DNA from: Actinospineispora acaciae DSM 45401
Lineage (GTDB): Bacteria; Actinomycetota; Actinomycetes; Mycobacteriales; Pseudonocardiaceae
Direction: 5' to 3'
Length of the DNA stretch: 64,000 nt
Assembly: GCF_000620785.1 (NCBI RefSeq)
Contig: NZ_JIAI01000002.1
Location: 1,246,177 to 1,310,176, forward strand
The translations under genes were made by a program, and so were the position numbers. This document shows, piece after piece, positions 2,713-64,000 of this stretch (position 1 is its first letter; every line of letters starts with the position of its first letter). The notes below the pieces were generated by a model. The model was not told the DNA's origin, did not search any database, and saw only the letters and a program-made list of their open reading frames with translations.

Positions 2713-2865
2713 GTTTCCAGCATCTCTCGCCCTACCGGTGGTCGCTTGCATGGGGACGATCGCGGCATGGCGGGCAGATCCGAGGTGTTGATTCGCGGGA
2801 ACGGGGTACTTGGGTGGTACGCGTGTTGACGCGGCGGCACGAGATGGAGGACAGCGGATGGGTGA

Positions 2866-3903
2866 GTGCCCTCAACGGCGGGTCTTACGAGTGTGATCAC
2901 GACAAGACCGGTGTTGCTCGCGCTGCGCGCGCTGGGCCTTGGTGACCTGCTCGCGGCGGTGCCGGCGCTGCGAGGACTCCGCTCGGCGTTTCCCGAGCAC
3001 CGCAGGCTGTTGGCCACCCCGTCCTGGCTGCATCCGCTGTGTGAGCTGATCGGCGGCTGGGAGCCCGTGCCGATGCCGGACCTGGCCGCCAAGCCGCCGC
3101 CGCTGGCCGGGCATCTGGACGTCGCGGTGAACCTGCACGGCAACGGGCCGCGCAGCGCGTCCGTGCTGGACTCGCTGCTGCCTCGGCACCGCATCGGGCA
3201 CCGCCGCCCTGGCTGGCCGGGGCCGGACTGGATTCGACAGCTCCCGGAACGGCACAGGTGGTGCCGGTTGCTCACCGCGCACGGCATCGTCGCCGACGAG
3301 CTGGACCTGCGGCTGCACCACCCGCGTCGGCCGGCCGCCGCCGAGGGGGCGATCCTGGTCCACCCGGGTTCGGCCCGCGCCGCCAAGCGGTGGCCGCTGT
3401 CCCGATTCGCCGAGGTCGCGGCGGCCTACTCCGCCGCCGGCCATCGGGTCGTGATCACCGGTAGCGCCGCCGAGCGCGAGCTGGCCGACCGGGTGGCAGA
3501 CCTGGCCGGACCTGGGCCGGAGGTGCTCGCCGGCCGGACCGACCTGCGTCGCCTCGCCGCGCAGGTCTTCGCGTCGCGGCTGGTGATCAGCGGCGACACC
3601 GGGATCGCGCACCTGGCCTACGCCTACCGCACGCCGACCGTCACCCTGTTCGGCCCGGTCGAGCCGTGGCTGTCCGGTCCGCCGCCGGTCGGCCCGCACC
3701 GCACGCTGGGCGGCACCCACCCGCGCGGCGACCTCCTCGCCGACCAGCCGGACCCGTCGCTGCTCGAGATCACCGTCGACGACGTGCTCGCCTCCGGCTC
3801 CGAGCTGGGGGTACCGCCCTCGGCCGTCCCCGACGACGAGTACGCCGAGCCCGCCCCGGCGTCGGCGCTGGTCGGCTCCGAGCCGGTCGCGCGCTCGTCC
3901 TGA
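2866..3903 (+). CDS. glycosyltransferase family 9 (heptosyltransferase-like)
   Basis: This 345-residue enzyme has the two-domain GT-B layout of ADP-heptose:LPS heptosyltransferases. The N-terminal motif LLALRALGLGDLLAAVPALR (near residue 17) binds acceptor or phosphate. The C-terminal donor site shows VHPGSARAAKRWPLSRFAEV (near 166) and ISGDTGIAHLAYAYRTPTVTLFGP (near 242). Actinobacteria lack LPS, so the acceptor is probably a cell-envelope glycan or a glycolipid; that is inference. The GTG at 2866 follows GGAGG by 15 bases, rather far; a GTG at 2893 is the alternative start. The gene converges on the DoxX gene. Confidence 0.8.
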   Translation: MPSTAGLTSVITTRPVLLALRALGLGDLLAAVPALRGLRSAFPEHRRLLATPSWLHPLCELIGGWEPVPMPDLAAKPPPLAGHLDVAVNLHGNGPRSASVLDSLLPRHRIGHRRPGWPGPDWIRQLPERHRWCRLLTAHGIVADELDLRLHHPRRPAAAEGAILVHPGSARAAKRWPLSRFAEVAAAYSAAGHRVVITGSAAERELADRVADLAGPGPEVLAGRTDLRRLAAQVFASRLVISGDTGIAHLAYAYRTPTVTLFGPVEPWLSGPPPVGPHRTLGGTHPRGDLLADQPDPSLLEITVDDVLASGSELGVPPSAVPDDEYAEPAPASALVGSEPVARSS

Positions 3904-50789: not shown

Positions 50790-51884
50790 ATGACCCCGGT
50801 GGTGCCGGCGCACCTGACGGTGCCGCCGCAGCGCGGGCGCGATGTGCTCAACATGGCGCTCGTCATTCCGCTGCAGGGGCCCGCCGGCATCTTCGGGCCG
50901 TCCTGCGAGAGCTGCGCGGCGCTCGCCATGGAGGAGGTCAACGCCGAGGGCGGCGTGCTGGGGCGCGAGCTGAACCTGGTGCCGGTGGACGGCGGGACGG
51001 CCCCCTCGGTGGTCGCCACGGACGTCGACGCGCTGATCCGCGCCGGCGCCGTGGAGGCCGTCACCGGGTGGCACATCTCCGCGGTGCGGGAGGCCGTGGC
51101 GCCCCGGATCGACGGGCGGGTGCCGTACGCGTACACCGCCCTGTACGAGGGCGGCGAGCGCCGGCCGGGGGTGTTCCTGACCGGTGAGACGCCCGACCGC
51201 CAGCTCGCTCCGACGCTGGAGTGGTTCGCCGGCTCGGCGGGGGTCCGGCGCTGGACGATCGTCGGCGACGACTACGTGTGGCCGCGCGGGTCCGCGCGGG
51301 CCGCGCACCGCTACCTGCGGCGGATCGGCGGGACCGTCTGCGACGAGATGTACGTCCCGCTCGGGACCTCGGACTTCTCCGGGGTGCTGCGCCGGGTGGA
51401 GGCCAGCGGCTGTGAGGCCGTGCTGATGCTGCTGATCGGCGACGACGCCGTCGAGTTCAACAGGGCGTTCAGCGCCAGCGGGCTGGACAGGGACGTGCTG
51501 CGGTTCAGCTCGCTGATCGACGAGAACGTGCTGCTCGCGTCGGGGGCGGACAACACGCGCGGGCTGATGACCTCCGCCGGGTACTTCGAGGACCTGGCGA
51601 CGACGTCGGGCATGGACTTCGCGGCCACCTACTTCCGCCGGTTCGGCCCGGACGCGCCGGTGCTCAACAGCCTGGGCGAGTCCTGCTACGAGGGCGTGCG
51701 GATGCTCACCGAGCTGATGCGCCGCGCCGGCTCGGTCGAGGTGCCGCCGGTGATGGCGGTGTCCGAGGGGCTGGCCTACGAGAGCCCGCGCGGCACCGTC
51801 GAGGTCCGCGACCGGCACCTGCGGCAGCGGGTCTTCCTCGCCGTCGCCGACGGGCTGTTCTGGGACGTCATCCAGGAGCTCTGA
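50790..51884 (+). CDS. AmiC/UrtA-like amide-sensing binding protein (cytoplasmic)
   Basis: The 364-residue protein has a type 1 periplasmic-binding fold closest to AmiC and urea/short-chain amide receptors: ALVIPLQGPAGIFGPSCESCA, VTGWHISAVREAVAPRIDGR, WTIVGDDYVWPRGSARAAHR and FSSLIDENVLLASGADNTRG. There is no signal peptide or lipobox, so it stays in the cytosol as a sensor, as AmiC does with its partner AmiR. No AmiR-like ANTAR protein is encoded here. It precedes fmdB-fmdA-amiS. The ATG lies 6 bases after TAGCGT. Confidence 0.85.
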   Translation: MTPVVPAHLTVPPQRGRDVLNMALVIPLQGPAGIFGPSCESCAALAMEEVNAEGGVLGRELNLVPVDGGTAPSVVATDVDALIRAGAVEAVTGWHISAVREAVAPRIDGRVPYAYTALYEGGERRPGVFLTGETPDRQLAPTLEWFAGSAGVRRWTIVGDDYVWPRGSARAAHRYLRRIGGTVCDEMYVPLGTSDFSGVLRRVEASGCEAVLMLLIGDDAVEFNRAFSASGLDRDVLRFSSLIDENVLLASGADNTRGLMTSAGYFEDLATTSGMDFAATYFRRFGPDAPVLNSLGESCYEGVRMLTELMRRAGSVEVPPVMAVSEGLAYESPRGTVEVRDRHLRQRVFLAVADGLFWDVIQEL

Positions 51885-52315: not shown

Positions 52316-52376
52316 CCGCGCACCGGTTTCGAGTTTTCCGCACACAGGTTTCTCACAACACCTGAGGAGTTCTGCC

Positions 52377-53630
52377 ATGCCCGAGGTCGTGTTCCCGCTC
52401 GACTCCCAGAAGAAGTTCACCGAGCAGCGCATCGTCGGTCACAACCGCTGGCACCCGGACATCCCGGCCCTGGTCCAGGTCAGGCCGGGCGACACGTTCC
52501 GGGTGCACTGCCGCGAATGGTTCGACGGCGCCATCCACAACAACGACTCCGCCGACGACATCCTGAACGCCCCGCTGGCCGGCGTGCACGTGCTGTCCGG
52601 CCCGATCGCCGTGCAGGGTGCCCAGCCCGGTGACCTGCTCATCGTCGACATCCTGGACGTAGGCCCGATCCCGCAGGAGGACTCCGGCCCGCTGGCCGGC
52701 CAGGGCTGGGGCTACACGGGGGTGTTCGCCACCCGCAACGGCGGCGGGTTCCTCACCGAGCAGTTCCCGGACGCCTACAAGGTGATCTGGGACTTCCAGG
52801 GCGGCGTCGCGACCTCGCGGCACGTGCCCGACGTGTCGTTCACCGGCATCGTGCACCCCGGCCTGATGGGCACCGCGCCCTCGGCGGACCTGCTGTCGAA
52901 GTGGAACGCCCGCGAGGGCGACCTGATCGCCACCGACCCGGCCAGGGTGCCGCCGCTGGCGCTGCCGCCGCTGCCGGAGTCGGCGATCCTGGGCAACCTG
53001 ACCGGCGACGAGTTCGACCGGATCGCCGCCGAGGCCGCCCGCACCGCGCCGCCCAGGGAGAACGGCGGCAACCAGGACATCAAGAACCTCACCAAGGGCT
53101 CGCGGGTGTTCTACCCGGTGTTCGTCGACGGCGCCAAGCTGTCCATGGGCGACCTGCACTTCTCCCAGGGCGACGGCGAGATCACGTTCTGCGGCGCGAT
53201 CGAGATGGGCGGGTTCATGGACCTGCACGTGGACGTGATCAAGAACGGCATGGAGCTGTACGGGGTGTCGGAGAACGCCGTGTTCATGCCGGGCCGGACC
53301 GACCCGCAGTACAGCGAGTGGCTGGCCTTCTCCGGCACCTCGGTGACCCTCGACGGCGAGCAGCGCTACCTCGACTCGCACCTGTCGTACCAGCGCGCCT
53401 GCCTGCACGCCATCGACTACCTGACCAAGTTCGGCTACAGCGACATCCAGGCGTACATGATCCTGGGCGCCGCGCCGATCGAGGGCCGGCTGTCCGGGGT
53501 GGTGGACATCCCGAACTCCTGCTCGACCGTCTACATCCCGACCGAGATCTTCGACTTCAACGTCCGGCCCGGCAAGGAAGGGCCGCACAAGATCGACCCC
53601 GGGATGGGCGTCCCCAGGGCCGCGGCGTGA
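52377..53630 (+). CDS. fmdA: acetamidase/formamidase FmdA
   Basis: FmdA hydrolyses formamide or short amides to ammonia and the acid in the cytosol. The 417-residue protein has the family blocks NRWHPDIPALVQVRPGDTFR, FDGAIHNNDSADDILN (near 50), TGIVHPGLMGTAPSADLL, NGGNQDIKNLTKGSRVFYPV (near 227) and AIEMGGFMDLHVDVI, ending with ILGAAPIEGRLSGVVDIPNS. ATG 52377 follows TGAGGAG by 7 bases. AmiS lies 18 bases downstream and imports the amide. Confidence 0.95.
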   Translation: MPEVVFPLDSQKKFTEQRIVGHNRWHPDIPALVQVRPGDTFRVHCREWFDGAIHNNDSADDILNAPLAGVHVLSGPIAVQGAQPGDLLIVDILDVGPIPQEDSGPLAGQGWGYTGVFATRNGGGFLTEQFPDAYKVIWDFQGGVATSRHVPDVSFTGIVHPGLMGTAPSADLLSKWNAREGDLIATDPARVPPLALPPLPESAILGNLTGDEFDRIAAEAARTAPPRENGGNQDIKNLTKGSRVFYPVFVDGAKLSMGDLHFSQGDGEITFCGAIEMGGFMDLHVDVIKNGMELYGVSENAVFMPGRTDPQYSEWLAFSGTSVTLDGEQRYLDSHLSYQRACLHAIDYLTKFGYSDIQAYMILGAAPIEGRLSGVVDIPNSCSTVYIPTEIFDFNVRPGKEGPHKIDPGMGVPRAAA

Positions 53631-53648: not shown

Positions 53649-54281
53649 ATGGGATCCGTGGGACTGCTGTTCGTCGGGGCCGTGCTGTTCATCAACGGAG
53701 CGATGCTGCTGGGCTGGGTCGACGCCAAGTCGGCCGCGCCGATCAACTTCTTCGTCGGCGGCCTGCAGATCATCACCCCGACCTACCTGATATTCACCGC
53801 CAACGGCAACGCCGACACCATCCTGTCGGCGGCGGGCCTGTACCTGTTCGCGTTCACCTACCTCTACGTCGGGCTCAACCTGGTGTTCGACCTGGACGGG
53901 ACGGGCCTGGGGTACTTCTGCTTCTTCGTGGTGCTGTCCGCCCTGGTCTACTCGGGCCTGAACTTCGTCCGCTTCGGCGATCCCGGTTTCGGCGTCATCT
54001 GGCTGTACTGGGCGTTCCTGTGGCTGTTGTTCTTCCTCGTGCTGGGCCTGAAGCGGGAGAGCCTGAGCCGCTACACCGGCGCGGTGTGTGCCATCCAGGG
54101 CTGGGTCACGGCGTGGCTGCCGGCGTTCCTGCTGCTCACCGGGCGGTACAACGACTACGTCGGGCCGCTCACGATCGCGCTCGTAGTGTTCGGCGTGGTG
54201 GTGTTCGTGGGCTTGTACGTACGGATGAGAAAGGGGGGCGCACAGCCGGTGGAGCCGGCCGCGCAGCACGCTCCGGCCTGA
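53649..54281 (+). CDS. amiS: AmiS/UreI-family amide/urea channel
   Basis: The 210-residue membrane protein has six predicted helices and the family motifs LLFVGAVLFINGAMLLGWVD, AAPINFFVGGLQIITPTYLI and FAFTYLYVGLNLVFDLDGTG. AmiS/UreI proteins conduct urea or short amides across the membrane. The basic tail (MRKGGAQPVEPAAQHAPA) is typical. Spacing of 18 bases to fmdA shows one operon for uptake and hydrolysis of formamide-like compounds. Confidence 0.93.
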   Translation: MGSVGLLFVGAVLFINGAMLLGWVDAKSAAPINFFVGGLQIITPTYLIFTANGNADTILSAAGLYLFAFTYLYVGLNLVFDLDGTGLGYFCFFVVLSALVYSGLNFVRFGDPGFGVIWLYWAFLWLLFFLVLGLKRESLSRYTGAVCAIQGWVTAWLPAFLLLTGRYNDYVGPLTIALVVFGVVVFVGLYVRMRKGGAQPVEPAAQHAPA

Positions 54282-54308: not shown

Positions 54309-55019
54309 GTGGCGAACGGGACGGTGACACTGGACCGGGTCGTCGACACCGTCGTGACGCTGGCCGACCAGCGCGGCGCCGTGGTGTTCGCCGCGGTGCT
54401 CGCGCTGGTCGCGGTCGGGTGGACGGCGGTGTGGCGCTGGGCGCGCACGGTCGTGACGATCGCCCACGAGGGCGGGCACGCGATCGTCGCGGTGCTGGCC
54501 GGCCGGGGGCTGACCGGCATCCGGCTGCACGCCGACACCTCGGGGTTGACCGTCTCGACCGGTGCCCGCCGGGGGCCGGGGCTGGTGTTCACCATTCTGG
54601 GCGGCTATCCGGCGCCGTCGGTGCTCGGGCTGGGCGGGGCGGCGCTGGTGGCGGCCGACCGCGCGGCGCTGATGCTGTGGATCGCGATCGGGCTGCTGGT
54701 GGCCGCGCTGGTGCACGTGCGCAACGCGTACGGGGTGTTCGCCGTGGTGGTCACCGGGGGGTTGGTCGGCGCCGTCGCGGGGTGGGGCGGGCCGGGGCTG
54801 CGTGACGGGTTCGCCGCCGCGCTGTGCTGGTTCCTGCTGTTCGGCGGCGTGCGGGCGGTGCGGGAGCTGTGGCGCACCACGCGGTGGACGCGCGGCACCT
54901 CGGACGCGGACCTGCTCGGCGCGCTCACCTGGCTGCCCCGGTCGCTGTGGGTGATCCTGTTCGGGCTGGTCGCCGCGGCCGCTGTGGTCGCGGCGGGTGG
55001 GTTGCTGCTGTTCAGCTGA
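54309..55019 (+). CDS. M50-like membrane metalloprotease homologue
   Basis: The 236-residue protein has six or so hydrophobic segments. A zinc motif HEGGH lies at the start of helix 2 (VTIAHEGGHAIVAVLAGRGL, near 51). A second segment DLLGALTWLPRSLWVIL may hold a metal-ligand Asp, as in M50 proteases. The family (M50B-like) is often annotated by this motif only, so intramembrane proteolysis is inferred, not shown. It starts 28 bases after amiS and may be in the same transcript. Confidence 0.8.
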   Translation: MANGTVTLDRVVDTVVTLADQRGAVVFAAVLALVAVGWTAVWRWARTVVTIAHEGGHAIVAVLAGRGLTGIRLHADTSGLTVSTGARRGPGLVFTILGGYPAPSVLGLGGAALVAADRAALMLWIAIGLLVAALVHVRNAYGVFAVVVTGGLVGAVAGWGGPGLRDGFAAALCWFLLFGGVRAVRELWRTTRWTRGTSDADLLGALTWLPRSLWVILFGLVAAAAVVAAGGLLLFS

Positions 55020-56340
55020 CCGGCGCGCGGTCGGCGCCCTCGGTGACGGCGACGCCCACGCCGCGCACCCAGCCCAGGCGGCCGGCGGCCACGTAGAGGA
55101 CGAACGCCAGCACCAGCGCGTTGACCGTCCCGATGCCGATCGGTACGAACATGCCGACCAGCGTGGACGCCAGCCAGATGAGCAGGCTGGCCGGCACCCA
55201 CACCGGGGCATGACCAGGGGCTCGGGTCTCGTCGGCGCCGCTCTGGCGCAGGTCGTCGCGCCAGGTTCGGACCACGAAGTACTCCGCGAGCATGATGCCG
55301 GCCACGGGGGAGAAGGTGTCGCCGAGCAGCGTCAGGAACGTGGCGAACGACCCGATGACGTTCGCGGCGGCCAGGACGGACCCGACGACGCCCATCGCGA
55401 GCGCCACCGCGCCCCGGTGCACCTTCCGGCCGAAGACGGCGTCGGCGAAGATCACGAACCCGAGGCTCGCGGAGTAGAGGTTCCAGTCGTTGATCTTCAG
55501 CGCGGACAGGACGGTGACCAGGACGCCGATCCAGCCCACCGCCGAGAGCACGATGACGACGACGTTCTCGGTGCGGGTGGCGTGGGCGAGGAGCACCCCG
55601 GACAGGCCGATGAAGAACTCGCCGAGCGTGATCCCCAGGACGGTCTGCTTCACCACGTCGCCGACCGTGCGGTTGAACCGCGTCATGTCGCAGGTGATCA
55701 CCGCGGTCAGCATCGTTCCGCCGGCGACCAGGCCGGCGCCCTGCGCCACGCTCATCGCCGGCCCCGGCGCGGGCGAGGCCACCAGCGCGGCGAGCGGGTG
55801 GTCGGTCAGCGTGGAAGCGATCGCCCAGCCGACGAGGATCACGAACGGCGGCACCGTCAGGTAGGCCGTCCACGCCATGGAGTTGAAGCCGAACACCACG
55901 ATCAGCGTGACGACCAGGCCGAACACCAGCGACCACGCCCACTCGGGCAGGCCGCCGAGCAATTGGGTGAGGCCCTGCGCGGAGATCTGGGTCTGCACGC
56001 CGAACCAGCCGATCAGCGAGATGCCGATGATCAGCCCGATCAGGCTCGCCCCGCCCTTCCCGAAGCCGGCCCAGCGGGCGATCATCGAGGTGGACATGCC
56101 CTCGCGCACGCCCAGGACCCCGACCAGGATCGTGATCAGCTCGAAGACCACCGACCCGCAGACGAACGCCCAGAACGCCTCCCAGAACGTCATCCCGACA
56201 CCGAGCGTCGAACCGAGCAGGAACAGCGGCAGCGACGACATGGTGCCGAACCGCTGCATCGCGACGGACAACCATCCGTGCCGGCGTTCGCGCGGAATCC
56301 GCCCCGCCGCGAAGTCGTCGGCCCCAATGTGTCGGGACAT
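55012..56340 (-). CDS. NCS1-family permease (CodB-like)
   Basis: The 442-residue transporter has 12 predicted helices and NCS1 hallmarks: RERRHGWLSVAMQRFGTMSS, MTFWEAFWAFVCGSVVFELI, STSMIARWAGFGKGGASLIG and ISLIGWFGVQTQISAQGLTQ. The family imports cytosine, purines, allantoin or hydantoins. The 4-base spacing to the preceding TetR gene shows one operon, and the divergent hyuAB genes suggest a substrate such as a cyclic amide, but this is inference. Its end overlaps the M50 gene by 8 bases. Confidence 0.9.
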   Translation of the reverse strand: MSRHIGADDFAAGRIPRERRHGWLSVAMQRFGTMSSLPLFLLGSTLGVGMTFWEAFWAFVCGSVVFELITILVGVLGVREGMSTSMIARWAGFGKGGASLIGLIIGISLIGWFGVQTQISAQGLTQLLGGLPEWAWSLVFGLVVTLIVVFGFNSMAWTAYLTVPPFVILVGWAIASTLTDHPLAALVASPAPGPAMSVAQGAGLVAGGTMLTAVITCDMTRFNRTVGDVVKQTVLGITLGEFFIGLSGVLLAHATRTENVVVIVLSAVGWIGVLVTVLSALKINDWNLYSASLGFVIFADAVFGRKVHRGAVALAMGVVGSVLAAANVIGSFATFLTLLGDTFSPVAGIMLAEYFVVRTWRDDLRQSGADETRAPGHAPVWVPASLLIWLASTLVGMFVPIGIGTVNALVLAFVLYVAAGRLGWVRGVGVAVTEGADRAPVS

Positions 56341-56343
56341 TCC

Positions 56344-56943
56344 TCAGCTCCTTGGCGAGTGCCGGAGAATGACGTCCAGCCCGAACTCGAACCGTTCCGG
56401 GAAGGCCGTTGTGGCGATCTCTTCGGAGACTTCGTGCAGGGCCGGGTGCTCCTCGGTCGAGGCGATCTGGAGCGACCCGTCGGCGCGTCTCTGTTCCTCG
56501 CCGACCAGGCCCTGCACGAAGTAGGTCAGCGTCCAGCTCGTCCAGACCGCCTCGCGCCGGGGCAGGCCGTCGAGCAGCGCGCTGATCAGCTCGTTCTCGA
56601 ATCGGAGCACGTTCGGGTCGATGCTCGGCATGCCGGTCATCAGCTGGGCGCTGTCCCGGTGGGAGAGCAGGGTGGCGCGCAGCCGGCGCATGATCTCCCG
56701 GGTGCGGCTCTCCCAGTGGTCGGGGAGGTCGTCGTAGCTGACCTCGCCGATGATTCTGTCGATGAGCAGTTCCAGGAGGCGGCGTTTGTCCTTGACGTGC
56801 CAGAGGACGGTTTGCATGGACACGTCGAGGCGCGCGGCAATGGCGCGGGTGGAAAGGCCGTCGAGCCCTTCGGCGTCGAGCACCGCCAATGCGGCGTCGA
56901 GCACGGCGGTCACCGTGAGTCCTTTGGGGACGGTGCGCGCCAT
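56344..56943 (-). CDS. TetR-family regulator with TetR_C domain
   Basis: The 199-residue protein has a TetR DNA-binding domain (GLTVTAVLDAALAVLDAEGL, then AIAARLDVSMQTVLWHVKDKRRL) and a C-terminal domain like that of TetR itself (LIDRIIGEVSYDDLPDHWES, TLTYFVQGLVGEEQRRADGS). It is co-transcribed with the NCS1 permease and divergent from hyuA. A perfect palindrome in the gap is its probable operator, controlling both transport and catabolism. Confidence 0.9.
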   Translation of the reverse strand: MARTVPKGLTVTAVLDAALAVLDAEGLDGLSTRAIAARLDVSMQTVLWHVKDKRRLLELLIDRIIGEVSYDDLPDHWESRTREIMRRLRATLLSHRDSAQLMTGMPSIDPNVLRFENELISALLDGLPRREAVWTSWTLTYFVQGLVGEEQRRADGSLQIASTEEHPALHEVSEEIATTAFPERFEFGLDVILRHSPRS

Positions 56944-56967
56944 CGGCCGAACCTAGCCATGACCGTT

Positions 56968-56988
56968 CACTCTGTCAACGACAGAGTG
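56968..56988. promoter_or_regulatory. perfect palindrome, TetR operator before hyuA
   Basis: CACTCTGTC (56968-56976) and GACAGAGTG (56980-56988) are exact 9-bp inverted arms around AAC, 21 bp in all. It sits 8 bases before the hyuA ATG and 25 bases from the tetR start, placed to shut both promoters. Confidence 0.85.
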
Positions 56989-56996
56989 TTCGCCGT

Positions 56997-59057
56997 ATGC
57001 TGCTCGCCGTGGATGCGAGGTCGGTGCGGGTCGCGGTGGACATCGGCGGGACGTTCGTGGACGCGATGGAGCTGGACGGGCGGACCGGGGCGGTGCGGTT
57101 CCGGAAGGCGTCCACCACGCCGGCGCGGCCGGCCGAGGGGGTGCTCAATGCGATCACCGCGCTGGGTACGGACCTGGCCGGGGCGGAGCTGTTCATCCAC
57201 GGCACGACGCTGGGGTTGAACGCGGTGCTGGAGCGGCGCGGCGAGACCACCGGGATCATCACCAACGAGGGCCTACGGGACGTCTTCCTGCTCGGGCGGG
57301 GCAACGTCCCGGACGCGCACATGTACGACTTTCAGTACGGGCGGCCGGCTGGGCTGGTGGAACGGCGCAACACGGTCGGCGTCCGGGGGCGGATGGACTA
57401 CCGGGGCAACGTCCTGGACGAGCTGGACGAGGACGGCGTGCGGGAGGCCGCGCGGGTGCTCGTGGAGGAGCACGGGGTGGGGTCGGTCGCTGTCTGTTTC
57501 CTGCACGCGTTCCGCGACCCGTCGCACGAGCGGCGCGCGGCGGAGCTGGTCCGGGAGGCGTATCCGCACGTCACGGTGTCCGTATCGACCGACATCGCGC
57601 GGGAGTACCGGGAGTACGAGCGCACCAGCACCACGGTGCTCGACGCGTACATCCGGCCGATCTTCGAGCGGTACGTGGGGGAGCTGGAGCGTTCGCTGTC
57701 CGTGCGCGGGTTCGCCGGGCGGTTCCGGATCATGCGCTCCGGTGGCGGGTCGATGTCGGCCGAGGCGGCGAAGGTGTCGCCGACGCACACGATCCTGTCC
57801 GGGCCGGCGGGCGGGGTGGTGGGCGCGGCGTTCCTGGCCGAGGCGCTGGGGCGGCGCGATCTTCTGACGTTCGACGTGGGCGGCACGTCGCTGGACACCT
57901 GCGTGATCGAGCGCGGCGGCGCGGTGACCGCGCACGAGGCGAGGCTGGAGGACTACCCGCTGCTGGTGCCGACCTACGACATCCGCACCATCGGCGCTGG
58001 CGGCGGGTCGGTGGCCTGGCTGGACGGTGGGCTGCTCAAGGTCGGGCCGCACAGCGCGGGCGCGGATCCCGGGCCGGTCTGTTACGGGCGGGGTGGGACC
58101 GAGCCGACGGTCACGGACGCGGCGGTCTGCCTGGGTTACGTGGATCCGAAGAGCTTCCTGTCCGGCGAGATGGACCTGCACGCGGACGCCGCGCGCGCCG
58201 CTCTGCGCGGGGAGATCGCCGGGCCGTTGGGGATGGACGTCCAGGCCGCGGCGGCGGGGGTGTTCGACGTGCTGTTGGCGCGCACCGTCGGCGCGGTCCG
58301 GCAGATCACCGTGGAGCGCGGGCACGACCCCCGGGAGTTCTCGCTGCTGGCCTTCGGCGGCGCCGGGCCGCTGCTGGCGCCGCTGTTGGCCAGGGAGATG
58401 GGCATCCGGGAGGTGATCGTGCCGTTCGCGCCGTCCGGGTTCTCGGCGTGGGGGATGCTCAGCGCGGACGTCGTGGAGGACGTCTCGCGCACGGTGATGT
58501 CGCCGCTGGACGAGCTGGACATGTCCGCTCTTCAGGGGATGTTCGACGAGCTGGGCGCGCAGGCGTCGGCGTCGGTCGCGGCGCAGGGCGTACCGGCCGG
58601 CCGGGCGGTGCTGGAGCGCCACCTGGAGATCCGCTACCTCGGCCAGGAGCACACCCTGCCGGTCCCGGTCGCGCAGGGGGTGCCGGACGCGGCGGCGGTG
58701 CGGGCGGAGTTCGAGCGGCTGCACCGGCTGCGCTACGGGCACGTCATGAACGACCGCCTGCAGGTGCTCACCGTGCGGGTGCGCGGCATCGGCCGGAGTG
58801 AGCCGCTGCAGGTCCCGGTGCTGCCCGCCGGCGACGGCTCCCCGGGGCGGGCACTCACCGGCAGCCGAGACGCGTTCGACTTCGACACCCGCGGCACGGC
58901 GTCGTTCGCGGTCTACGACCGTTCGCTGCTGGAGCCCGGTGACGTCTTCCCCGGGCCGGCGCTCGTCGACGAAGGAACCTCGACCACCGTGGTGCACGGC
59001 GGCCAGTCAGTGCACGTGGACGAACACGGTTATCTGACGGTACGGGAGGCCCGGTAG
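56997..59057 (+). CDS. hyuA: hydantoinase/oxoprolinase subunit A (HyuA)
   Basis: The 686-residue subunit belongs to the ATP-dependent N-methylhydantoinase/5-oxoprolinase/acetophenone-carboxylase family. It has ASKHA-fold motifs: VRVAVDIGGTFVDAMELDG (near 10), LFIHGTTLGLNAVLERRGE (near 62), ILSGPAGGVVGAAFLAEALG (near 264) and FDVGGTSLDTCVIERGG. The C-terminal region binds ATP and links to subunit B. These enzymes open cyclic amides or carboxylate ketones. The ATG at 56997 is the first after the operator; stop and hyuB start overlap by one base (TAGTG). Confidence 0.92.
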   Translation: MLLAVDARSVRVAVDIGGTFVDAMELDGRTGAVRFRKASTTPARPAEGVLNAITALGTDLAGAELFIHGTTLGLNAVLERRGETTGIITNEGLRDVFLLGRGNVPDAHMYDFQYGRPAGLVERRNTVGVRGRMDYRGNVLDELDEDGVREAARVLVEEHGVGSVAVCFLHAFRDPSHERRAAELVREAYPHVTVSVSTDIAREYREYERTSTTVLDAYIRPIFERYVGELERSLSVRGFAGRFRIMRSGGGSMSAEAAKVSPTHTILSGPAGGVVGAAFLAEALGRRDLLTFDVGGTSLDTCVIERGGAVTAHEARLEDYPLLVPTYDIRTIGAGGGSVAWLDGGLLKVGPHSAGADPGPVCYGRGGTEPTVTDAAVCLGYVDPKSFLSGEMDLHADAARAALRGEIAGPLGMDVQAAAAGVFDVLLARTVGAVRQITVERGHDPREFSLLAFGGAGPLLAPLLAREMGIREVIVPFAPSGFSAWGMLSADVVEDVSRTVMSPLDELDMSALQGMFDELGAQASASVAAQGVPAGRAVLERHLEIRYLGQEHTLPVPVAQGVPDAAAVRAEFERLHRLRYGHVMNDRLQVLTVRVRGIGRSEPLQVPVLPAGDGSPGRALTGSRDAFDFDTRGTASFAVYDRSLLEPGDVFPGPALVDEGTSTTVVHGGQSVHVDEHGYLTVREAR

Positions 59058-60727
59058 TGACGACGCCCGATGGCGCCACCGTGGAGGTGGTGCGGTCGTA
59101 CCTGGTCGCCGCGGCGGAGGAGATGCGCGCGACGCTGATCCGCACCGCGTTCAACCCGGTGATCTACGAGGTGCTCGACTTCGGCATCTCCGTCTACGAC
59201 GCCCGGATGCGGCTGGTCGCCGAGGCGGCCGGGATGACGTTCTTCCTCGGCGCGAACGACTACTCGCTGGCCAAGGGCGTGGAGTACGTCGGCGCGCAGA
59301 ACCTGCACCCCGGCGACATCGTGCTGCTGAACTACCCGTACTGGAACGCCGCGCACGCCTCGGACGCGACGTTGTTTATGCCCGTCTTCCACGGCGACCC
59401 GCAAACCCTCGTCGGCTACCTGTGCGTGCGGGTGCACTGGATGGACCTGGGCGCCAAGGACCCCGGCTACGTCCTCGACTCCACCGACATGCACCAGGAA
59501 GGCGTGATCTTCCCGGGCACCAAGGTGTTCGAGCGCGGCGAACCGGACGAGAAGATCCTGGAGCTGCTCCGGTTCAACTCGCGCATGCCGGAGCTCGTGA
59601 TCGGCGACCTGCACGCCCAGGTCGCCGCCCTGCGGACCGGCGAGCACCGGTTCCACGAGATCCTGGCCAAGTTCGGCGCCGACACCGTGACGGCATGCGT
59701 GGACCGCTACCTGGAGGCGGCCGAGGTCAAGGCGCGGGCGAGGCTGCGGGAGCTGCCGCAGGGCTCCTGGACGGCCACCGACTGGCTCGACGACGACGGC
59801 ATCAGCGACGATCCGATCCTCATGCGGGTCACGGTGACGATCGCGGACGGCACGCTGACCTGCGACTTCACCGGTTCGGCCGGCGCGGCGCGGGGGCCTG
59901 TCAACATGCCGTTCGGGGCCACGCTGGCCATGTGCAAGGTGGTGCTCAAGGCGCTCACCTCGCCCGACGAGCCGACCAACGCCGGCACCACCGCCGCGCT
60001 GCGGGTCGTCGCCCCGCCCGGGTCGCTGTTCCACGCGGTGTACCCGGCGCCCACCTACACCCTGTGGACGGGCATCGTCGCGTTCGAGCTGATCTACAAG
60101 GCGCTCGCGCAGGGCATGCCCGAGCTGCTGGCGGCCAGCACCGGCGGGGACATGCCGGGGTTCATGATGGTCGGCGAGCACCCGGAGACCGGCGAGTTCT
60201 ACGCGATCAGCAACAACGAGCCGGTGGGCTGGGGCGCAAGCCCCGGGCACGACGGCAACCACGCCACCATCCACATCTCGGCCAGCACCTCGCGGAACAC
60301 GCCGCTCGAAGTGCTGGAGGCGCGCACCGGGATGATCTTCGAGCGGGTGGAGATCCGGGAGGACTCGTCGGGCGCCGGCCGGTTCCGGGGCGGGTGCGGG
60401 CTGCGCCGCGACATCCGGTTCCGCGCGCCGGGGGAGTTCCTGTCGGTGATCAAGAAGACGAAGACGCGGCCGTGGGCGATCGGCGGCGGACATGAGCCCG
60501 AGCCGAACCAGGTGGTCGTCTTCCCCGGCACCGACCGCGAGCACCGGGTGAGCACGAAACGGGTGGCGGTGGCGCCCGGTGACCGGATCACGGTGCTCAC
60601 CGCCGGCGGCGGTGGCCACGGCGACCCGCGCGAGCGGGATCCCGACCTGGTGCGCCGCGATGTCGCCCAGGGGTACGTCTCGCCGGCGGTCGCCCGCGAG
60701 GTCTACGGCGTGGAGGTGGATCGGTGA
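59057..60727 (+). CDS. hyuB: hydantoinase/oxoprolinase subunit B (HyuB)
   Basis: The 556-residue subunit has HyuB motifs: SYLVAAAEEMRATLIRTAFN (near 16), GDIVLLNYPYWNAAHASDATLF (near 90), MHQEGVIFPGTKVFERGEPD and TCDFTGSAGAARGPVNMPFG (near 271), and ends with GGGGHGDPRERDPDLVRRDVAQG. It forms the complex with HyuA. The start GTG 59057 shares a base with the hyuA stop and its own stop overlaps the amidohydrolase start (GTGA). The whole set is therefore a tightly coupled catabolic operon. Confidence 0.93.
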   Translation: MTTPDGATVEVVRSYLVAAAEEMRATLIRTAFNPVIYEVLDFGISVYDARMRLVAEAAGMTFFLGANDYSLAKGVEYVGAQNLHPGDIVLLNYPYWNAAHASDATLFMPVFHGDPQTLVGYLCVRVHWMDLGAKDPGYVLDSTDMHQEGVIFPGTKVFERGEPDEKILELLRFNSRMPELVIGDLHAQVAALRTGEHRFHEILAKFGADTVTACVDRYLEAAEVKARARLRELPQGSWTATDWLDDDGISDDPILMRVTVTIADGTLTCDFTGSAGAARGPVNMPFGATLAMCKVVLKALTSPDEPTNAGTTAALRVVAPPGSLFHAVYPAPTYTLWTGIVAFELIYKALAQGMPELLAASTGGDMPGFMMVGEHPETGEFYAISNNEPVGWGASPGHDGNHATIHISASTSRNTPLEVLEARTGMIFERVEIREDSSGAGRFRGGCGLRRDIRFRAPGEFLSVIKKTKTRPWAIGGGHEPEPNQVVVFPGTDREHRVSTKRVAVAPGDRITVLTAGGGGHGDPRERDPDLVRRDVAQGYVSPAVAREVYGVEVDR

Positions 60728-61947
60728 CAGACGTGCTGGTGCGCGGTGCGACGCTGGTCGACGCGGTCGGCGAGCGGACGGTGCCGGGCGCGGCGGTGTG
60801 GGTGCGCGACGGCCGGATCGTCCGGTGTGGGCCGGAACGGGATCTCAGCGTCCCGGCCGACCGGGTGGACGTCGACCTGGACGGCGGCTACCTGATGCCC
60901 GGACTGGTCAACATGCACACCCACCTGTCGCTGTCGCTGCCCGGGCGGGCGGGGGAGGAGATCCTCGCGCTGGATGCGTACGGGCTCGCCCTGTACATGG
61001 CGGCGGGCGCGCGCCGGACCCTGCACGGCGGGGTGACCACCGTGCGCTGCGTCGCGGAGAAGGACCACGCCGAGTTCGCGCTGCGGCGGGCCATCGAGCG
61101 CGGCGAGGTGCCCGGACCTCGGATCTTCACCGCGGGCCGGGGCCTGGCGTGCACCGGCGGGCACGGCCACTCCTCCACCGACACCCTGGAGTGCGACGGC
61201 CCCGACGGCTTCCGCCGAGGCACCCGGGAGCAGCTCAAGGTCGGCGCCGACCTGATCAAGGTGATGATCTCCGGCGGCATCGCGGGTGAGCACGAGGCGA
61301 TCCATACCCCCCAGCTGACCGGCGACGAGATGGCCGCCGTGATCGACACCGCGCACGCGTGGGGCCGCAAGGTCACCGCGCACGCCGGCCCGGCGCCGGT
61401 GATCGAGGAGGCGGTCCGCCTGGGGCTGGACTGCGTGGAGCACGGCTACCAGCTCACCGAGCCGGTGGTCGCGCTGATGGCCGAGCGCGGCGTGCACCTG
61501 GTGCCGACGCTCGTGGTCACCCGCTGCGGCGAGTTCTTCGACGAGCTGGGCGTGCCGCCGTGGATGCAGCGCCGCTCGCTGGACGCCGGGCCGCGTCACA
61601 TGGGCAGCTACCGGATGGCCCTGGCGGCCGGCGTGCCCGTCATGTTGGGTAGCGACATGCCGCCGTTCTGGCAGTTCGAGGGGACGAGCGCCACGGTCCG
61701 CGAGCTGGAGTACATGGCCGAGGGCGGGCTCGCGCCGTACCCCGCGCTGCGGGCGGCCACGATCGTCCCGGCGCGCTGGCTCGGCGCCGAGCACGACATC
61801 GGCACCGTCGAGGAGGGCAAGCTCGCCGACCTCATCGCGACCCGCGACGACCCCACCAGGGACATCTCCGCGCTGCGCACCCTGAACTGGGTGATGAAGG
61901 GCGGCGAGGTGGTGCGTGACGACCGTCGGGATTGGCGGTCGCCATGA
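60724..61947 (+). CDS. metal-dependent amidohydrolase (imidazolonepropionase-like)
   Basis: The 407-residue enzyme is an amidohydrolase-superfamily TIM barrel: metal His65 and His67 in MPGLVNMHTHLSL, LIKVMISGGIAGE with a probable carboxylated Lys (near 179), VTAHAGPAPVIEEAVRLGLD, CVEHGYQL and GVPVMLGSDMPPF (catalytic Asp). The group includes imidazolonepropionase-like and Xaa-Pro dipeptidase-like cyclic-amide hydrolases. It overlaps hyuB by 4 bases and the next gene by 4 (ATGA). It probably cleaves an amide in the same pathway. Confidence 0.9.
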   Translation: MTDVLVRGATLVDAVGERTVPGAAVWVRDGRIVRCGPERDLSVPADRVDVDLDGGYLMPGLVNMHTHLSLSLPGRAGEEILALDAYGLALYMAAGARRTLHGGVTTVRCVAEKDHAEFALRRAIERGEVPGPRIFTAGRGLACTGGHGHSSTDTLECDGPDGFRRGTREQLKVGADLIKVMISGGIAGEHEAIHTPQLTGDEMAAVIDTAHAWGRKVTAHAGPAPVIEEAVRLGLDCVEHGYQLTEPVVALMAERGVHLVPTLVVTRCGEFFDELGVPPWMQRRSLDAGPRHMGSYRMALAAGVPVMLGSDMPPFWQFEGTSATVRELEYMAEGGLAPYPALRAATIVPARWLGAEHDIGTVEEGKLADLIATRDDPTRDISALRTLNWVMKGGEVVRDDRRDWRSP

Positions 61948-63101
61948 CCGAGATCGCCGCCGTGGTGGAGGGGCTGTACCGCGCGCTCGGTGACCGGGCC
62001 GCGTTCGACGCGTACCTCGACCCCCGCATCACTATCTGGGAGAGCGACGCCGACCGGCTGCTGGACGGCCTGCCTTCGCTGGATGAGCTGCGCGACCGGC
62101 GGGCCGCGCGAGCGTCGGGTCCGTCGCCGGTGTCGGTCGCGCCCGAGGACATCCGGGCGGACGTCTGGGGCGACACCGCCGTCGCCCGGTACCTGCTGCG
62201 CGCCCGGTTCCCCGCGCCGTCGGCCGACCGCTGCTTCCGGGTCACCGACGTGCTGCGCCGCGACGACGAGCACGGCTGGCGGATCGTGCACCACCACGCC
62301 GAGGCGCTGTCGCTGCTCGACCGGTCGGTGCCCCCGCACGCCGGCGGGACGCTCACCTACGGCGGCTACCTGCGCCTGGACGAGCTGCTGGCCTGCCAGA
62401 CCCCGCTCACCGACGCGCACGACGAACTGCTGTTCGTGGTGATCCACCAGGTCTACGAGCTCTGGTTCGCGCAGATCCTGCACGAGGCGGCGCTGCTGCA
62501 GCGGCGGCTGGAGGACGGCGACAGCACCGGCGCGCTGCACACCGCCCGCCGCATCGCCAAGATCCTCAAGACCATCGTCGGCCAGCTCGACGTGCTGGAG
62601 ACGATGACCCCGCGCCAGTTCGCGTCCTTCCGCCCCGAGCTGGGCTCCTCCAGCGGCTTCCAGTCCCACCAGTTCCGCGAGCTGGAAGCGGTGCTCGGCC
62701 GGCGAGGGTTCGCCCGCGACGTGCTGGACGAACGACTGCGCGCGGCGACCACCCGCCGCTCGGTGTTCGACTCGCTGCTGCGCTACCTGGCCGGCACCGG
62801 GCTCGCCGTCCCGCCCGACGCGCTCGACCGCGACCCCGCCCAACCCTGGCGGCCTCGGGCCGACGTGCGCGCGGTCCTGGCCACCGCGTACGCCGACGAG
62901 CGCAACCCGGCGGCCGAGGTGTGCGAGGCGCTGGTGGACATCGACGAGGGCGTGCAGGAGTGGCGCTACCGCCACGTGAAGATGGTCGAACGGATCATCG
63001 GCAGCCGGACCGGGACCGGCGGCTCCTCCGGTGCGGACTACCTGCGCTCGACGCTGTTCCGCCCGGCGTTCCCCGAGCTGTGGGAGGTCCGGGGCGCCTG
63101 A
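61944..63101 (+). CDS. SnoaL-like domain fused to tryptophan 2,3-dioxygenase
   Basis: The 385-residue protein joins two domains. Residues 1-120 look like a SnoaL/NTF2-like fold (VVEGLYRALGDRAAFDAYLD, VTDVLRRDDEHGWRIVHHHA). From about 135 it is a tryptophan 2,3-dioxygenase: GGYLRLDELLACQTPLTDAH, LFVVIHQVYELWFAQIL (catalytic His near 167), QFASFRPELGSSSGFQSHQF, and YRHVKMVERIIGS (haem His near 342) with GTGGSSGADYLR. TDO opens the indole ring to N-formylkynurenine. ATG 61944 overlaps the amidohydrolase stop; known TDOs are 270-290 residues, so the N-terminal domain is extra. Confidence 0.93.
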   Translation: MTEIAAVVEGLYRALGDRAAFDAYLDPRITIWESDADRLLDGLPSLDELRDRRAARASGPSPVSVAPEDIRADVWGDTAVARYLLRARFPAPSADRCFRVTDVLRRDDEHGWRIVHHHAEALSLLDRSVPPHAGGTLTYGGYLRLDELLACQTPLTDAHDELLFVVIHQVYELWFAQILHEAALLQRRLEDGDSTGALHTARRIAKILKTIVGQLDVLETMTPRQFASFRPELGSSSGFQSHQFRELEAVLGRRGFARDVLDERLRAATTRRSVFDSLLRYLAGTGLAVPPDALDRDPAQPWRPRADVRAVLATAYADERNPAAEVCEALVDIDEGVQEWRYRHVKMVERIIGSRTGTGGSSGADYLRSTLFRPAFPELWEVRGA

Positions 63102-64000
63102 CCGGCCGCACCGGCCCATCGACGCAGGGTGGCGTCGAGGCCGGTGCCGTCGGGGATGTCGGTGGCCCAGGCGACCACACCGTCCGGGCGTACCAGCACC
63201 CCGGTCGGTGTCGCGGGCTCGTCCGTCACGCCGTGCACCCGCCCGGCCCAGGCCGAGGCGAGGCGGGCGAACGCGCCGTCCGGGGTGCGGTCGAGCAGCA
63301 CGAACCCGCCGCCGTGAGCGTGGAAGGCCAGCCGCGAGCCGTCCGCCAGCCGCAGGTCGGGGACGAACCCGCCGACCAGCGGATGGTCGCCGGGCAGGTC
63401 GATGCGCTGGGTGACGCCGGAGATCTTCTTGACCGCGTGGGTCGTGCCGTCCCGGGTGCCCAGCAGGTCGGCGACGACCCCGCGCAGCGCCCCCGACTTG
63501 GCGTCCCCGCGCAGCACCCCGATCTGTGCCCGCGTCCAGTCCAGCACCCAGGCACCGATCGGACGGCGCTCGTCGTCGTAGGTGTCGAGCAGCCCTTCGG
63601 GCGCCCACCCGGCGACCACCGCGCCGAGCTTCCACCCGAGGTTCACCGCGTCGCCGACCCCCAGGTTGAGCCCCTGGCCGCCGAACGGCGAGTGCACGTG
63701 CGCGGCATCGCCGGCCAGCAGCACCCGCCCCGACCGGTAGTTCGCGGCCTGGCGGGCGTTGTCGGACCAGCGGGTCGCCGGGCCGCGCAGCGCGGTCAGC
63801 GTGACGTCCGTGCTCGACACCCGCCGCAGGCTGGCCTGCACCTCGTCCAGCGTGACCGGTGCCGACCGGTCGTTGACGCGGTCGAACTCCAGGGTGGTCA
63901 CCCGCCCGGGCTGTGGCCCGCAGCGGTACACCCCCTGGGGAGACCACGTCCATCCGCTCGCGAGCTTCTCCGGATCGGCGATGTCGACGTTCGCCAGCAG
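63038..64000 (-). CDS. FAD-dependent monooxygenase, PHBH-type, partial (cut by right edge)
   Basis: The 3' two thirds of a class A flavin hydroxylase is visible and the frame is open to the edge. The second FAD motif is LLAGDAAHVHSPFGGQGLNLGVGDAVNLGWKL (Asp near the flavin), followed by LLDTYDDERRPIGAWVLDWT and a C-terminal thioredoxin-like domain (FVPDLRLADGSRLAFHAHGG). These enzymes hydroxylate phenols or indole-type rings with NAD(P)H. Its 3' end overlaps the TDO gene by 64 bases. Convergence with the hyu-TDO operon suggests a linked aromatic pathway. Confidence 0.9.
   Translation of the reverse strand: MLANVDIADPEKLASGWTWSPQGVYRCGPQPGRVTTLEFDRVNDRSAPVTLDEVQASLRRVSSTDVTLTALRGPATRWSDNARQAANYRSGRVLLAGDAAHVHSPFGGQGLNLGVGDAVNLGWKLGAVVAGWAPEGLLDTYDDERRPIGAWVLDWTRAQIGVLRGDAKSGALRGVVADLLGTRDGTTHAVKKISGVTQRIDLPGDHPLVGGFVPDLRLADGSRLAFHAHGGGFVLLDRTPDGAFARLASAWAGRVHGVTDEPATPTGVLVRPDGVVAWATDIPDGTGLDATLRRWAGAAGQAPRTSHSSGNAGRNSVERR

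What the first reader, a model, noticed from the sequence alone, without database searches (positions are those of the whole stretch)
55012..64000. Candidate catabolic island for an indole- or tryptophan-derived cyclic amide
A TetR-NCS1 permease operon faces a translationally coupled hyuA-hyuB-amidohydrolase-SnoaL/TDO operon, with a class A flavin monooxygenase converging at the end. NCS1 carriers include hydantoin permeases, hyuAB-type enzymes open cyclic amides and TDO opens indole rings. A route from an indolylmethyl-hydantoin or similar compound to kynurenine-type products is a reasonable, untested reading.
Basis: inference. Interest (0 to 1): 0.85.

Follow-up and report, generated by a model that had tools for sequence, protein, structure and literature searches.

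The report
Tryptophan dioxygenase fused inside hydantoinase-type operon
A bacterium carries a small operon in which enzymes of the kind that open cyclic amides are made together with a tryptophan-ring-opening enzyme welded to a small helper domain, perhaps to break down a tryptophan-containing amide, but the actual substrate is unknown.

Summary
The genes are there and tightly coupled: NCS1-TetR facing hyuA-hyuB-amidohydrolase-(SnoaL-TDO). SnoaL and TDO are one fused protein. The TDO half keeps the tryptophan-binding residues and GTGGS loop of L-tryptophan dioxygenases. It groups with standalone TDOs of other actinobacteria, not with the same-genus TDOs examined, and is the only TDO match in the held assembly; the best kynureninase match lies on another contig. 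A perfect tetO-like palindrome, with no second copy in the assembly, separates the divergent units. The hyuA-hyuB-amidohydrolase-SnoaL order recurs without TDO in 6 of 29 other genomes with this amidohydrolase; in 4 of the 29, kynurenine genes lie beside it, an independent link to tryptophan catabolism. NCS1 relatives sit beside a HyuA-like gene in 12 of 12 loci I chose. The flavin monooxygenase looks separate. Best reading: a locally regulated operon that hydrolyses an imported cyclic or acylated amide and passes released L-tryptophan to TDO. No other SnoaL-TDO fusion was found in the samples searched.

The parts
55012..56340 (-). NCS1-type permease (closest named model cytosine permease, below cut-off)
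   Evidence: PF02133 60 bits; NCBIfam PRK11017 135.6 bits, cut-off 326; relatives beside a HyuA-like gene in 12 of 12 chosen loci
56344..56943 (-). TetR-family repressor
   Evidence: PF02909 and PF00440; NCBIfam TetR model 106 bits, cut-off 265
56968..56988 (.). perfect palindrome (9-bp arms, 3-bp centre) in the 53-bp divergent gap; probable TetR operator
   Evidence: 14 of 16 arm positions equal tetO (tetO recalled), 0 of 20000 shuffles of the gap reach this; no second site with up to 2 mismatches in the held assembly
56997..59057 (+). HyuA, ATP-binding subunit of a hydantoinase/lactamase-type enzyme (start codon not certain)
   Evidence: PF05378, PF01968, PF19278; ATP motifs DIGGTFVD, FDVGGT, GADPGP
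59057..60727 (+). HyuB, metal-binding hydrolytic subunit
   Evidence: PF02538 531 bits; residues aligned with CapB Asp41, His99, Asp102, His124 kept
60724..61947 (+). amidohydrolase nearest to Cc2672 (Xaa-Pro dipeptidase / carboxypeptidase group)
   Evidence: PF01979 150.6 bits; XaaProDiPepCaul 277.2 bits, cut-off 500; 3mtw E 1.6e-59, HxH, Lys, His, His, Asp positions aligned by eye, their metal role recalled
61944..62333 (+). SnoaL-like domain (N-terminal part of the fusion) and linker; boundary approximate
   Evidence: PF13474 40.7 bits; up to 69% identity over the aligned stretch to standalone SnoaL genes of other cassettes; the eight closest end at HHHAEAVR or HHHAEAIR
62334..63101 (+). 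tryptophan 2,3-dioxygenase domain (C-terminal part of the fusion)
   Evidence: TIGR03036 255.1 bits, cut-off 390.7; PDB 2nox E 1.3e-51; residues; tree
63038..64000 (-). class A FAD monooxygenase (nearest model rifampin monooxygenase), converging and overlapping; probably a separate unit
   Evidence: PF01494, PF21274; whole gene NF033145 358.6 bits, cut-off 800; divergent TetR-family gene beyond the window

Best explanation
A locally regulated catabolic operon. The TetR protein represses both directions from one palindromic operator and is released by the substrate or a product (inferred). The NCS1 permease brings in a small cyclic or acylated amide (inferred). HyuAB opens a cyclic amide bond with ATP, and the Cc2672-type amidohydrolase cuts an amide bond to free an amino acid (enzyme class and catalytic motifs shown, substrate inferred). 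The freed L-tryptophan is opened to N-formylkynurenine by the TDO half of the SnoaL-TDO fusion (residues for L-Trp shown, activity inferred), and the kynureninase-like protein encoded on another contig continues toward anthranilate (gene shown, flow inferred). SnoaL is the operon's ancestral last gene, to which a TDO acquired from outside the genus was fused (inferred from other cassettes and from the tree); it may bind or convert an intermediate, or only hold TDO near the other enzymes.
For: Gene coupling and domains. TDO residues equivalent to Xc Y24, Y27, L28, F51, H55, F116, R117, L120, S124, G125, H240, T254 and the GTGGS loop kept (signature from passages of PMC11904535). TDO in a 24-row clade (100/100); 18 of its 23 other rows have a KMO-like FAD protein within 2.5 kb, and three of these (L021, L023, L026) also HAO, ACMSD-like and KynU genes. 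Only TDO match at E 0.001 in the assembly; best kynureninase match on another contig without TDO beside it. hyuA-hyuB-amidohydrolase-SnoaL order in 6 of 29 genomes plus one cut by a contig end. Kynurenine genes beside the amidohydrolase in 4 of 29 genomes, in two arrangements (KynU and HAO above cut-off in the one tested, G956). NCS1 beside a HyuA-like gene in 12 of 12 chosen loci. Operator.
Against: 25 of 29 genomes with the amidohydrolase show no TDO in the fetched stretch (up to 19.5 kb), so the cassette is not bound to tryptophan. The four with TDO are all of the window's family and three share one layout, so they may be one or two events. No kynurenine formamidase was recognised in or near the operon; the genome has 11 PF04199 matches, none assigned by me, and only weak matches (E 2.8e-8, 6.2e-5) to the alpha/beta hydrolase seen near Frankiaceae TDO genes. 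The kynureninase-like gene scores 239 bits, under its cut-off of 246.4. A lysine (Xc K63) found in 83 of 84 other TDOs (Arg in the 84th) is Ala here, so the TDO could be impaired. The TDO scores below its equivalog cut-off, though so do the TDOs of two kynurenine operons (265.1 for G278; 302.0 for G956). In the window the permease is divergent from hyuA, unlike in the 12 chosen loci, where the HyuA-like gene follows it. TDO and HyuAB may be co-transcribed without sharing a pathway.
Confidence: 0.45

Rival explanations
1. Two unrelated functions in one transcript: HyuAB, amidohydrolase, SnoaL and NCS1 degrade a non-indolic cyclic amide, as may be the case in the genomes without TDO nearby, and a transferred TDO was captured by fusion to the last gene, taking the place of a native TDO for general tryptophan breakdown.
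For: hyuA-hyuB-amidohydrolase-SnoaL in 6 genomes with no TDO in the fetched stretch; the TDO is a xenolog by the tree and the only TDO match in the assembly; the kynureninase-like gene stands without TDO.
Against: Kynurenine genes lie beside the same amidohydrolase in 4 of 29 other genomes. With an assumed 7 Mb genome and one TDO each, at least 2 of 29 has a chance of 0.003. A repressor with a single site in the genome suits inducible use.
Confidence: 0.35
2. One reading: an indolylmethyl-hydantoin enters through NCS1, HyuAB opens it to N-carbamoyl-tryptophan, the amidohydrolase removes the carbamoyl group, TDO opens tryptophan.
For: Same enzyme classes as the best explanation; relatives of the permease lie beside HyuA-like genes and, in the one locus tested, S-Me-THD-like proteins.
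Against: None of the operon's genes is an N-carbamoyl-amino-acid hydrolase by Pfam or NCBIfam; the nearest solved relatives of the amidohydrolase are named carboxypeptidase, dipeptidase and similar hydrolases. A natural source of the compound is not known to me (recall).
Confidence: 0.1
3. Oxindole route: the TDO domain works as a MarE-like monooxygenase making a 2-oxindole, whose lactam HyuAB then opens, as a HyuAB-like gamma-lactamase does in anaerobic indoleacetate breakdown.
For: A HyuAB-type gamma-lactamase serves indoleacetate breakdown in A. aromaticum (passages of PMC5214803 and PMC8453981); MarE shows that a TDO fold can make 2-oxindoles (passages of PMC11904535).
Against: The window TDO has GTGGS and an SSSG lid loop, not MarE's SLGGR and DATG, and is 77% identical to TDOs that sit beside a KMO-like gene.
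Confidence: 0.05

Closest known systems
Tryptophan 2,3-dioxygenase of the kynurenine pathway, actinobacterial type
   Same: Domain, substrate and heme residues, GTGGS loop, up to 77% identity to Actinomadura TDOs
   Different: N-terminal SnoaL fusion; hydantoinase-type operon instead of KynU/KMO-like neighbours; a near-invariant Lys replaced by Ala; below the equivalog cut-off
ATP-dependent lactamases/hydantoinases (caprolactamase CapAB, N-methylhydantoinase, IaaCE-type gamma-lactamase)
   Same: HyuA and HyuB layout, ATP motifs, four metal ligands, no gamma subunit
   Different: Well below the caprolactamase equivalog cut-offs (509.6 and 205.3 bits against 1000); substrate unknown; IaaCE sequences were not compared here
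Amidohydrolase-SnoaL-TIGR04076-LLM cassette of related actinobacteria (no description found; seen here)
   Same: HyuA, HyuB, amidohydrolase and SnoaL homologs in the same order in 6 genomes
   Different: Window has NCS1/TetR instead of the peptide ABC importer and XRE-cupin regulator, lacks TIGR04076, LLM and alpha/beta hydrolase next door, and adds TDO
MarE 2-oxindole-forming monooxygenase
   Same: TDO superfamily
   Different: Signature loops of MarE absent

Membership tests
Tryptophan 2,3-dioxygenase | Curated equivalog score TIGR03036 (390.7 bits) | tested here: not met
   255.1 bits. The TDOs of two kynurenine operons also miss it: G278 265.1 (short gene call), G956 302.0, so the cut-off is strict for this group
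Tryptophan 2,3-dioxygenase | Axial His, substrate His and Arg, Thr of the GTGGS loop | tested here: met
   Xc H240, H55, R117, T254 equivalents kept
Tryptophan 2,3-dioxygenase | Groups with TDOs of kynurenine-type loci in a tree | tested here: met
   24-row clade, 100/100; 18 of 23 other rows with a KMO-like gene within 2.5 kb
Tryptophan 2,3-dioxygenase | Converts L-Trp to N-formylkynurenine | not testable with these tools
   needs an assay
MarE-type oxindole monooxygenase | SLGGR and DATG loops | tested here: not met
   GTGGS and SSSG in the window; signatures from passages of PMC11904535
ATP-dependent hydantoinase/lactamase | ATP motifs in HyuA, Asp-His-Asp-His metal site in HyuB, two-gene layout without gamma subunit | tested here: met
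Caprolactamase | NCBIfam equivalog cut-offs; vicinal Cys pair in CapB | tested here: not met
   509.6 and 205.3 bits against 1000; no Cys-Cys in HyuB
Ketone (acetone/acetophenone) carboxylase | Extra gamma subunit; best similarity to Acx/Apc | tested here: not met
   no gamma gene in the operon; ApcC 329.1 against CapA 509.6 bits, ApcD 68.2 against CapB 205.3 bits
Cc2672-type dipeptidase/carboxypeptidase amidohydrolase | Equivalog score; nearest solved relative with the metal residues | tested here: inconclusive
   nearest is 3mtw (Cc2672) with the residues aligned by eye, but 277.2 bits against a cut-off of 500
Hydantoin permease (NCS1) | Named equivalog model | tested here: inconclusive
   no NCBIfam NCS1 model reaches its cut-off; HyuA-like neighbour in 12 of 12 chosen loci

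The most novel reading that the evidence does not exclude
The operon stands for an undescribed route in which an ATP-dependent lactamase and an amidohydrolase free tryptophan from a cyclic or acylated tryptophan natural product and hand it to a SnoaL-TDO fusion whose SnoaL domain takes part in the chemistry; the amidohydrolase cassettes beside kynurenine operons in related actinobacteria are versions of the same route.
Probability: 0.25. Interest if true: 0.65.

Novelty: new variant of a known kind. Interest (0 to 1): 0.5.

Why it matters
If true, it gives a natural substrate class to one of the many unassigned HyuAB and Cc2672-type enzymes, and a single-operator system in which that substrate can be sought by simple induction tests. 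The fusion ties a tryptophan-ring-opening enzyme to an amide-hydrolysis operon, and the recurring amidohydrolase cassette beside kynurenine genes offers further genomes for the test.

Tried and rejected
Considered and set aside: (a) An artefact for the fusion: one uninterrupted ORF on a 1.47 Mb contig with an intact SnoaL end and TDO start; the assembly is 98.11% complete and 7.34% contaminated, figures seen in other genomes of the genus too. (b) MarE-like chemistry: loops do not fit. (c) Ketone carboxylase: no gamma subunit, weaker similarity. (d) Formamidase FmdA at 52374-53630 as deformylase of N-formylkynurenine: it passes the formamidase equivalog (689.6 bits, cut-off 500) and lies with AmiS and a UrtA-like gene, so not assigned here. 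(e) The FAD monooxygenase as pathway member: other strand and own TetR-family gene. (f) Island by tRNA insertion: no tRNA gene found in the window. (g) Longer alignments that might be further fusions (G002, G008, G017, G020): fetched and read, plain TDO ORFs of 272-282 aa without SnoaL. (h) Structure prediction of the fusion: TDO part largely above pLDDT 84, SnoaL part not modelled, as the alignment held no SnoaL rows; not used further. (i) Paper searches, open-licence library only: 12 listed; 0; 0; 1, unrelated; 1, unrelated; 14 listed; 0; 8 of 47 listed; 6 of 27 listed. I saw passages only of PMC8453981, PMC5214803, PMC12633357 (iad auxin pathway; no hydantoinase mentioned) and PMC11904535, the rest as listings.

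Searches then showed HAO above its cut-offs (L023, L164), kynureninase above its cut-off in L023 (420.1) and L164 (391.2), below it in the window's genome (239.2) and G011 (222.8). The KMO-like proteins match only FAD_binding_3 and no KMO-specific model, the ACMSD-like ones only Amidohydro_2, and the PLP protein beside Amycolatopsis-type TDOs (L032) matches no NCBIfam model at 1e-20.
Full report
Observation. The operon is present as described. The permease and TetR genes read leftward from a 53-bp gap; hyuA, hyuB, the amidohydrolase and SnoaL-TDO read rightward with overlaps of 1, 4 and 4 bases. SnoaL and TDO are one protein of 385 residues from ATG 61944. In other amidohydrolase cassettes SnoaL is a separate gene; the eight closest SnoaL proteins end at HHHAEAVR or HHHAEAIR, and the window protein runs on from that point through a short linker into the TDO core.

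The TDO half. The held assembly has no other TDO match at E 0.001. Residues equivalent to X. campestris Y24, Y27, L28, F51, H55, F116, R117, L120, S124, G125, H240 and T254 are kept, Y113 is Phe, and Lys63, found in 83 of 84 other TDOs (Arg in one; the distant L130 row was left out), is Ala. The roles of these positions are partly recalled; His55 and the substrate Arg are supported by passages of PMC11904535, which also give GTGGS as the TDO loop against MarE's SLGGR. In an 86-row tree the window falls in a 24-row clade (100/100) with TDOs of Actinomadura, Spirillospora, Embleya, Frankiaceae and others; the ten same-genus rows fall in another, 14-row clade with some order and class mates. Other same-genus TDO matches were not in the tree.

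Neighbours of TDO elsewhere. Of the 80 TDO loci (best 80 of 586), 67 have one of three labelled genes within 2.5 kb and 13 do not. My breakdown of the 67: 18 with a KMO-like FAD protein, 7 with a kynureninase-like protein, 42 with a PLP protein like that of L032, which matches no NCBIfam model at 1e-20 and whose kynureninase role is therefore not shown. In L021, L023 and L026 the neighbours include HAO, an ACMSD-like protein, KynU and a KMO-like protein; HAO and KynU of L023 pass their cut-offs. Of nine same-genus loci listed and read, eight have a kynureninase-like gene in the short flank. In the window's genome the best kynureninase match (238.9 bits, cut-off 246.4) lies on contig 1 with no TDO beside it. 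None of the 80 loci showed HyuA, HyuB, this amidohydrolase or this SnoaL in the flank held (49 of 80 have 9.9 kb or more on both sides). No second fusion was seen in 60 relatives or 396 phylum genomes, counts that include the window's own genome. The phylum search scored up to 4 candidates a genome and listed only 7 of 396 genomes, at 1e-60 or better. Four longer alignments were read and are plain TDOs.

HyuAB. Both subunits score higher against caprolactamase than acetophenone carboxylase models, all below cut-off. The ATP motifs and four metal ligands described for CapAB (passages of PMC8453981) are kept, and the two-gene layout is the hydantoinase type by the criteria in PMC5214803 (passages). 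A cyclic-amide hydrolase is the better supported class; the substrate is open.

Amidohydrolase and its cassette. The nearest solved relative is Cc2672, named an L-arginine carboxypeptidase; ochratoxinase and other hydrolases follow. Homologs were listed in 23 of 298 order genomes at 1e-80 and in 9 of 390 family genomes at 1e-120, the window's own included in both (few candidates per genome were scored). I fetched 30 windows (7.9 to 19.5 kb) that cover all 29 other genomes of these two lists and labelled genes by a simple codon-usage caller and BLAST. SnoaL is in 18 of 29 genomes. Of the 30 windows, 9 have HyuA and/or HyuB, 14 a DUF885-like protein, 5 an Amidohydro_3-type protein (one of these also HyuB) and 3 none of these; family models were run on one DUF885 and one Amidohydro_3 protein only. 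The order hyuA-hyuB(-hyuB)-amidohydrolase-SnoaL is seen in 6, one more is cut by a contig end, and two have a distant amidohydrolase in another order. A peptide-type ABC importer, TIGR04076 and LLM genes and an XRE-cupin regulator are frequent. A TDO lies in the fetched stretch in 4 of 29 (G011, G278, G953, G956): 4 of 8 in the window's family, 0 of 21 outside. In G278, G953 and G956 TDO, KynU, KMO-like and HAO genes (ACMSD-like seen in G956) are divergent from an Lrp gene and the amidohydrolase; in G011 a KynU-TDO pair lies at the other end. With an assumed 7 Mb genome and one TDO each, at least 2 of 29 has a chance of 0.003 and at least 4 of 1.2e-6; as three share one layout, the first figure is the fairer. 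Whether each of the 29 has a TDO elsewhere was not tested.

Permease and regulator. Permease homologs at 1e-60 occur in 147 of 386 family genomes, own included. I chose 12 loci, ten in other genomes and two paralogs in the window's genome; in all 12 a HyuA-like gene (29-31% identity to the window HyuA) follows the permease. In the one locus tested by Pfam the next two genes are S-Me-THD-like; similar sequences were seen by eye in four others. In the window the permease is divergent from hyuA instead. The gap between TetR and HyuA holds CACTCTGTC AAC GACAGAGTG at 56968-56988. It equals the recalled tetO in 14 of 16 arm positions; 0 of 20000 shuffles of the gap reach that, and none of 1207 non-overlapping 53-base windows of the 64 kb exceeds 11 (the site straddles two of them). 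The assembly has no second site with up to 2 mismatches. A consensus scan found no sigma-70-type promoter or terminator.

Mechanism. I give the most weight to a tryptophan-amide salvage operon (0.45), because the enzyme classes present could do each step and because the same amidohydrolase lies beside kynurenine genes elsewhere. The main rival (0.35) is that HyuAB and the amidohydrolase serve a non-indolic amide and the TDO was captured. One test parts them: what induces the operon.

Novelty. TDO, HyuAB, NCS1 and Cc2672-type enzymes are known. The SnoaL-TDO fusion, its place in this operon and the amidohydrolase cassette did not turn up in the open-licence searches made; subscription papers were not searched. 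I rate it a new variant of a known kind.

Noticed in passing
window 50790-51884, 52374-53630, 53649-54281 (+): Formamide module: UrtA-like binding protein, formamidase above its equivalog cut-off, AmiS/UreI-type protein.
   Followed up: partly
L003:1215-2768(-) and 2819-3583(+), window 63038 onward: Rifampin-monooxygenase-like FAD enzyme (below cut-off) with a divergent TetR-family gene, converging on the operon.
   Followed up: partly
L003:3608-10887(-), just beyond the window: IclR-type regulator, HsaA-like monooxygenase homolog and a peptide/nickel-type ABC importer a few kb downstream of the operon.
   Followed up: partly
L205-L216: NCS1 permease followed by a HyuA-like protein in 12 of 12 chosen loci, two of them in the window's genome; S-Me-THD-like proteins next in the locus tested (L205).
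   Followed up: partly
L120-L136, L139, L162-L173: Cassette around the Cc2672-type amidohydrolase with frequent SnoaL, TIGR04076, LLM, XRE-cupin and peptide ABC importer genes, where HyuAB, DUF885 and Amidohydro_3 proteins seem to take each other's place.
   Followed up: partly
window 62469-62471 (codon 180 of the ORF from 61932; Xc TDO Lys63): Lysine found in 83 of 84 other TDOs is alanine in the fusion.
   Followed up: no
L130:6172-6876(-): Very divergent TDO (33% to the window TDO, long branch in the tree) in a kynurenine operon beside the amidohydrolase cassette.
   Followed up: no
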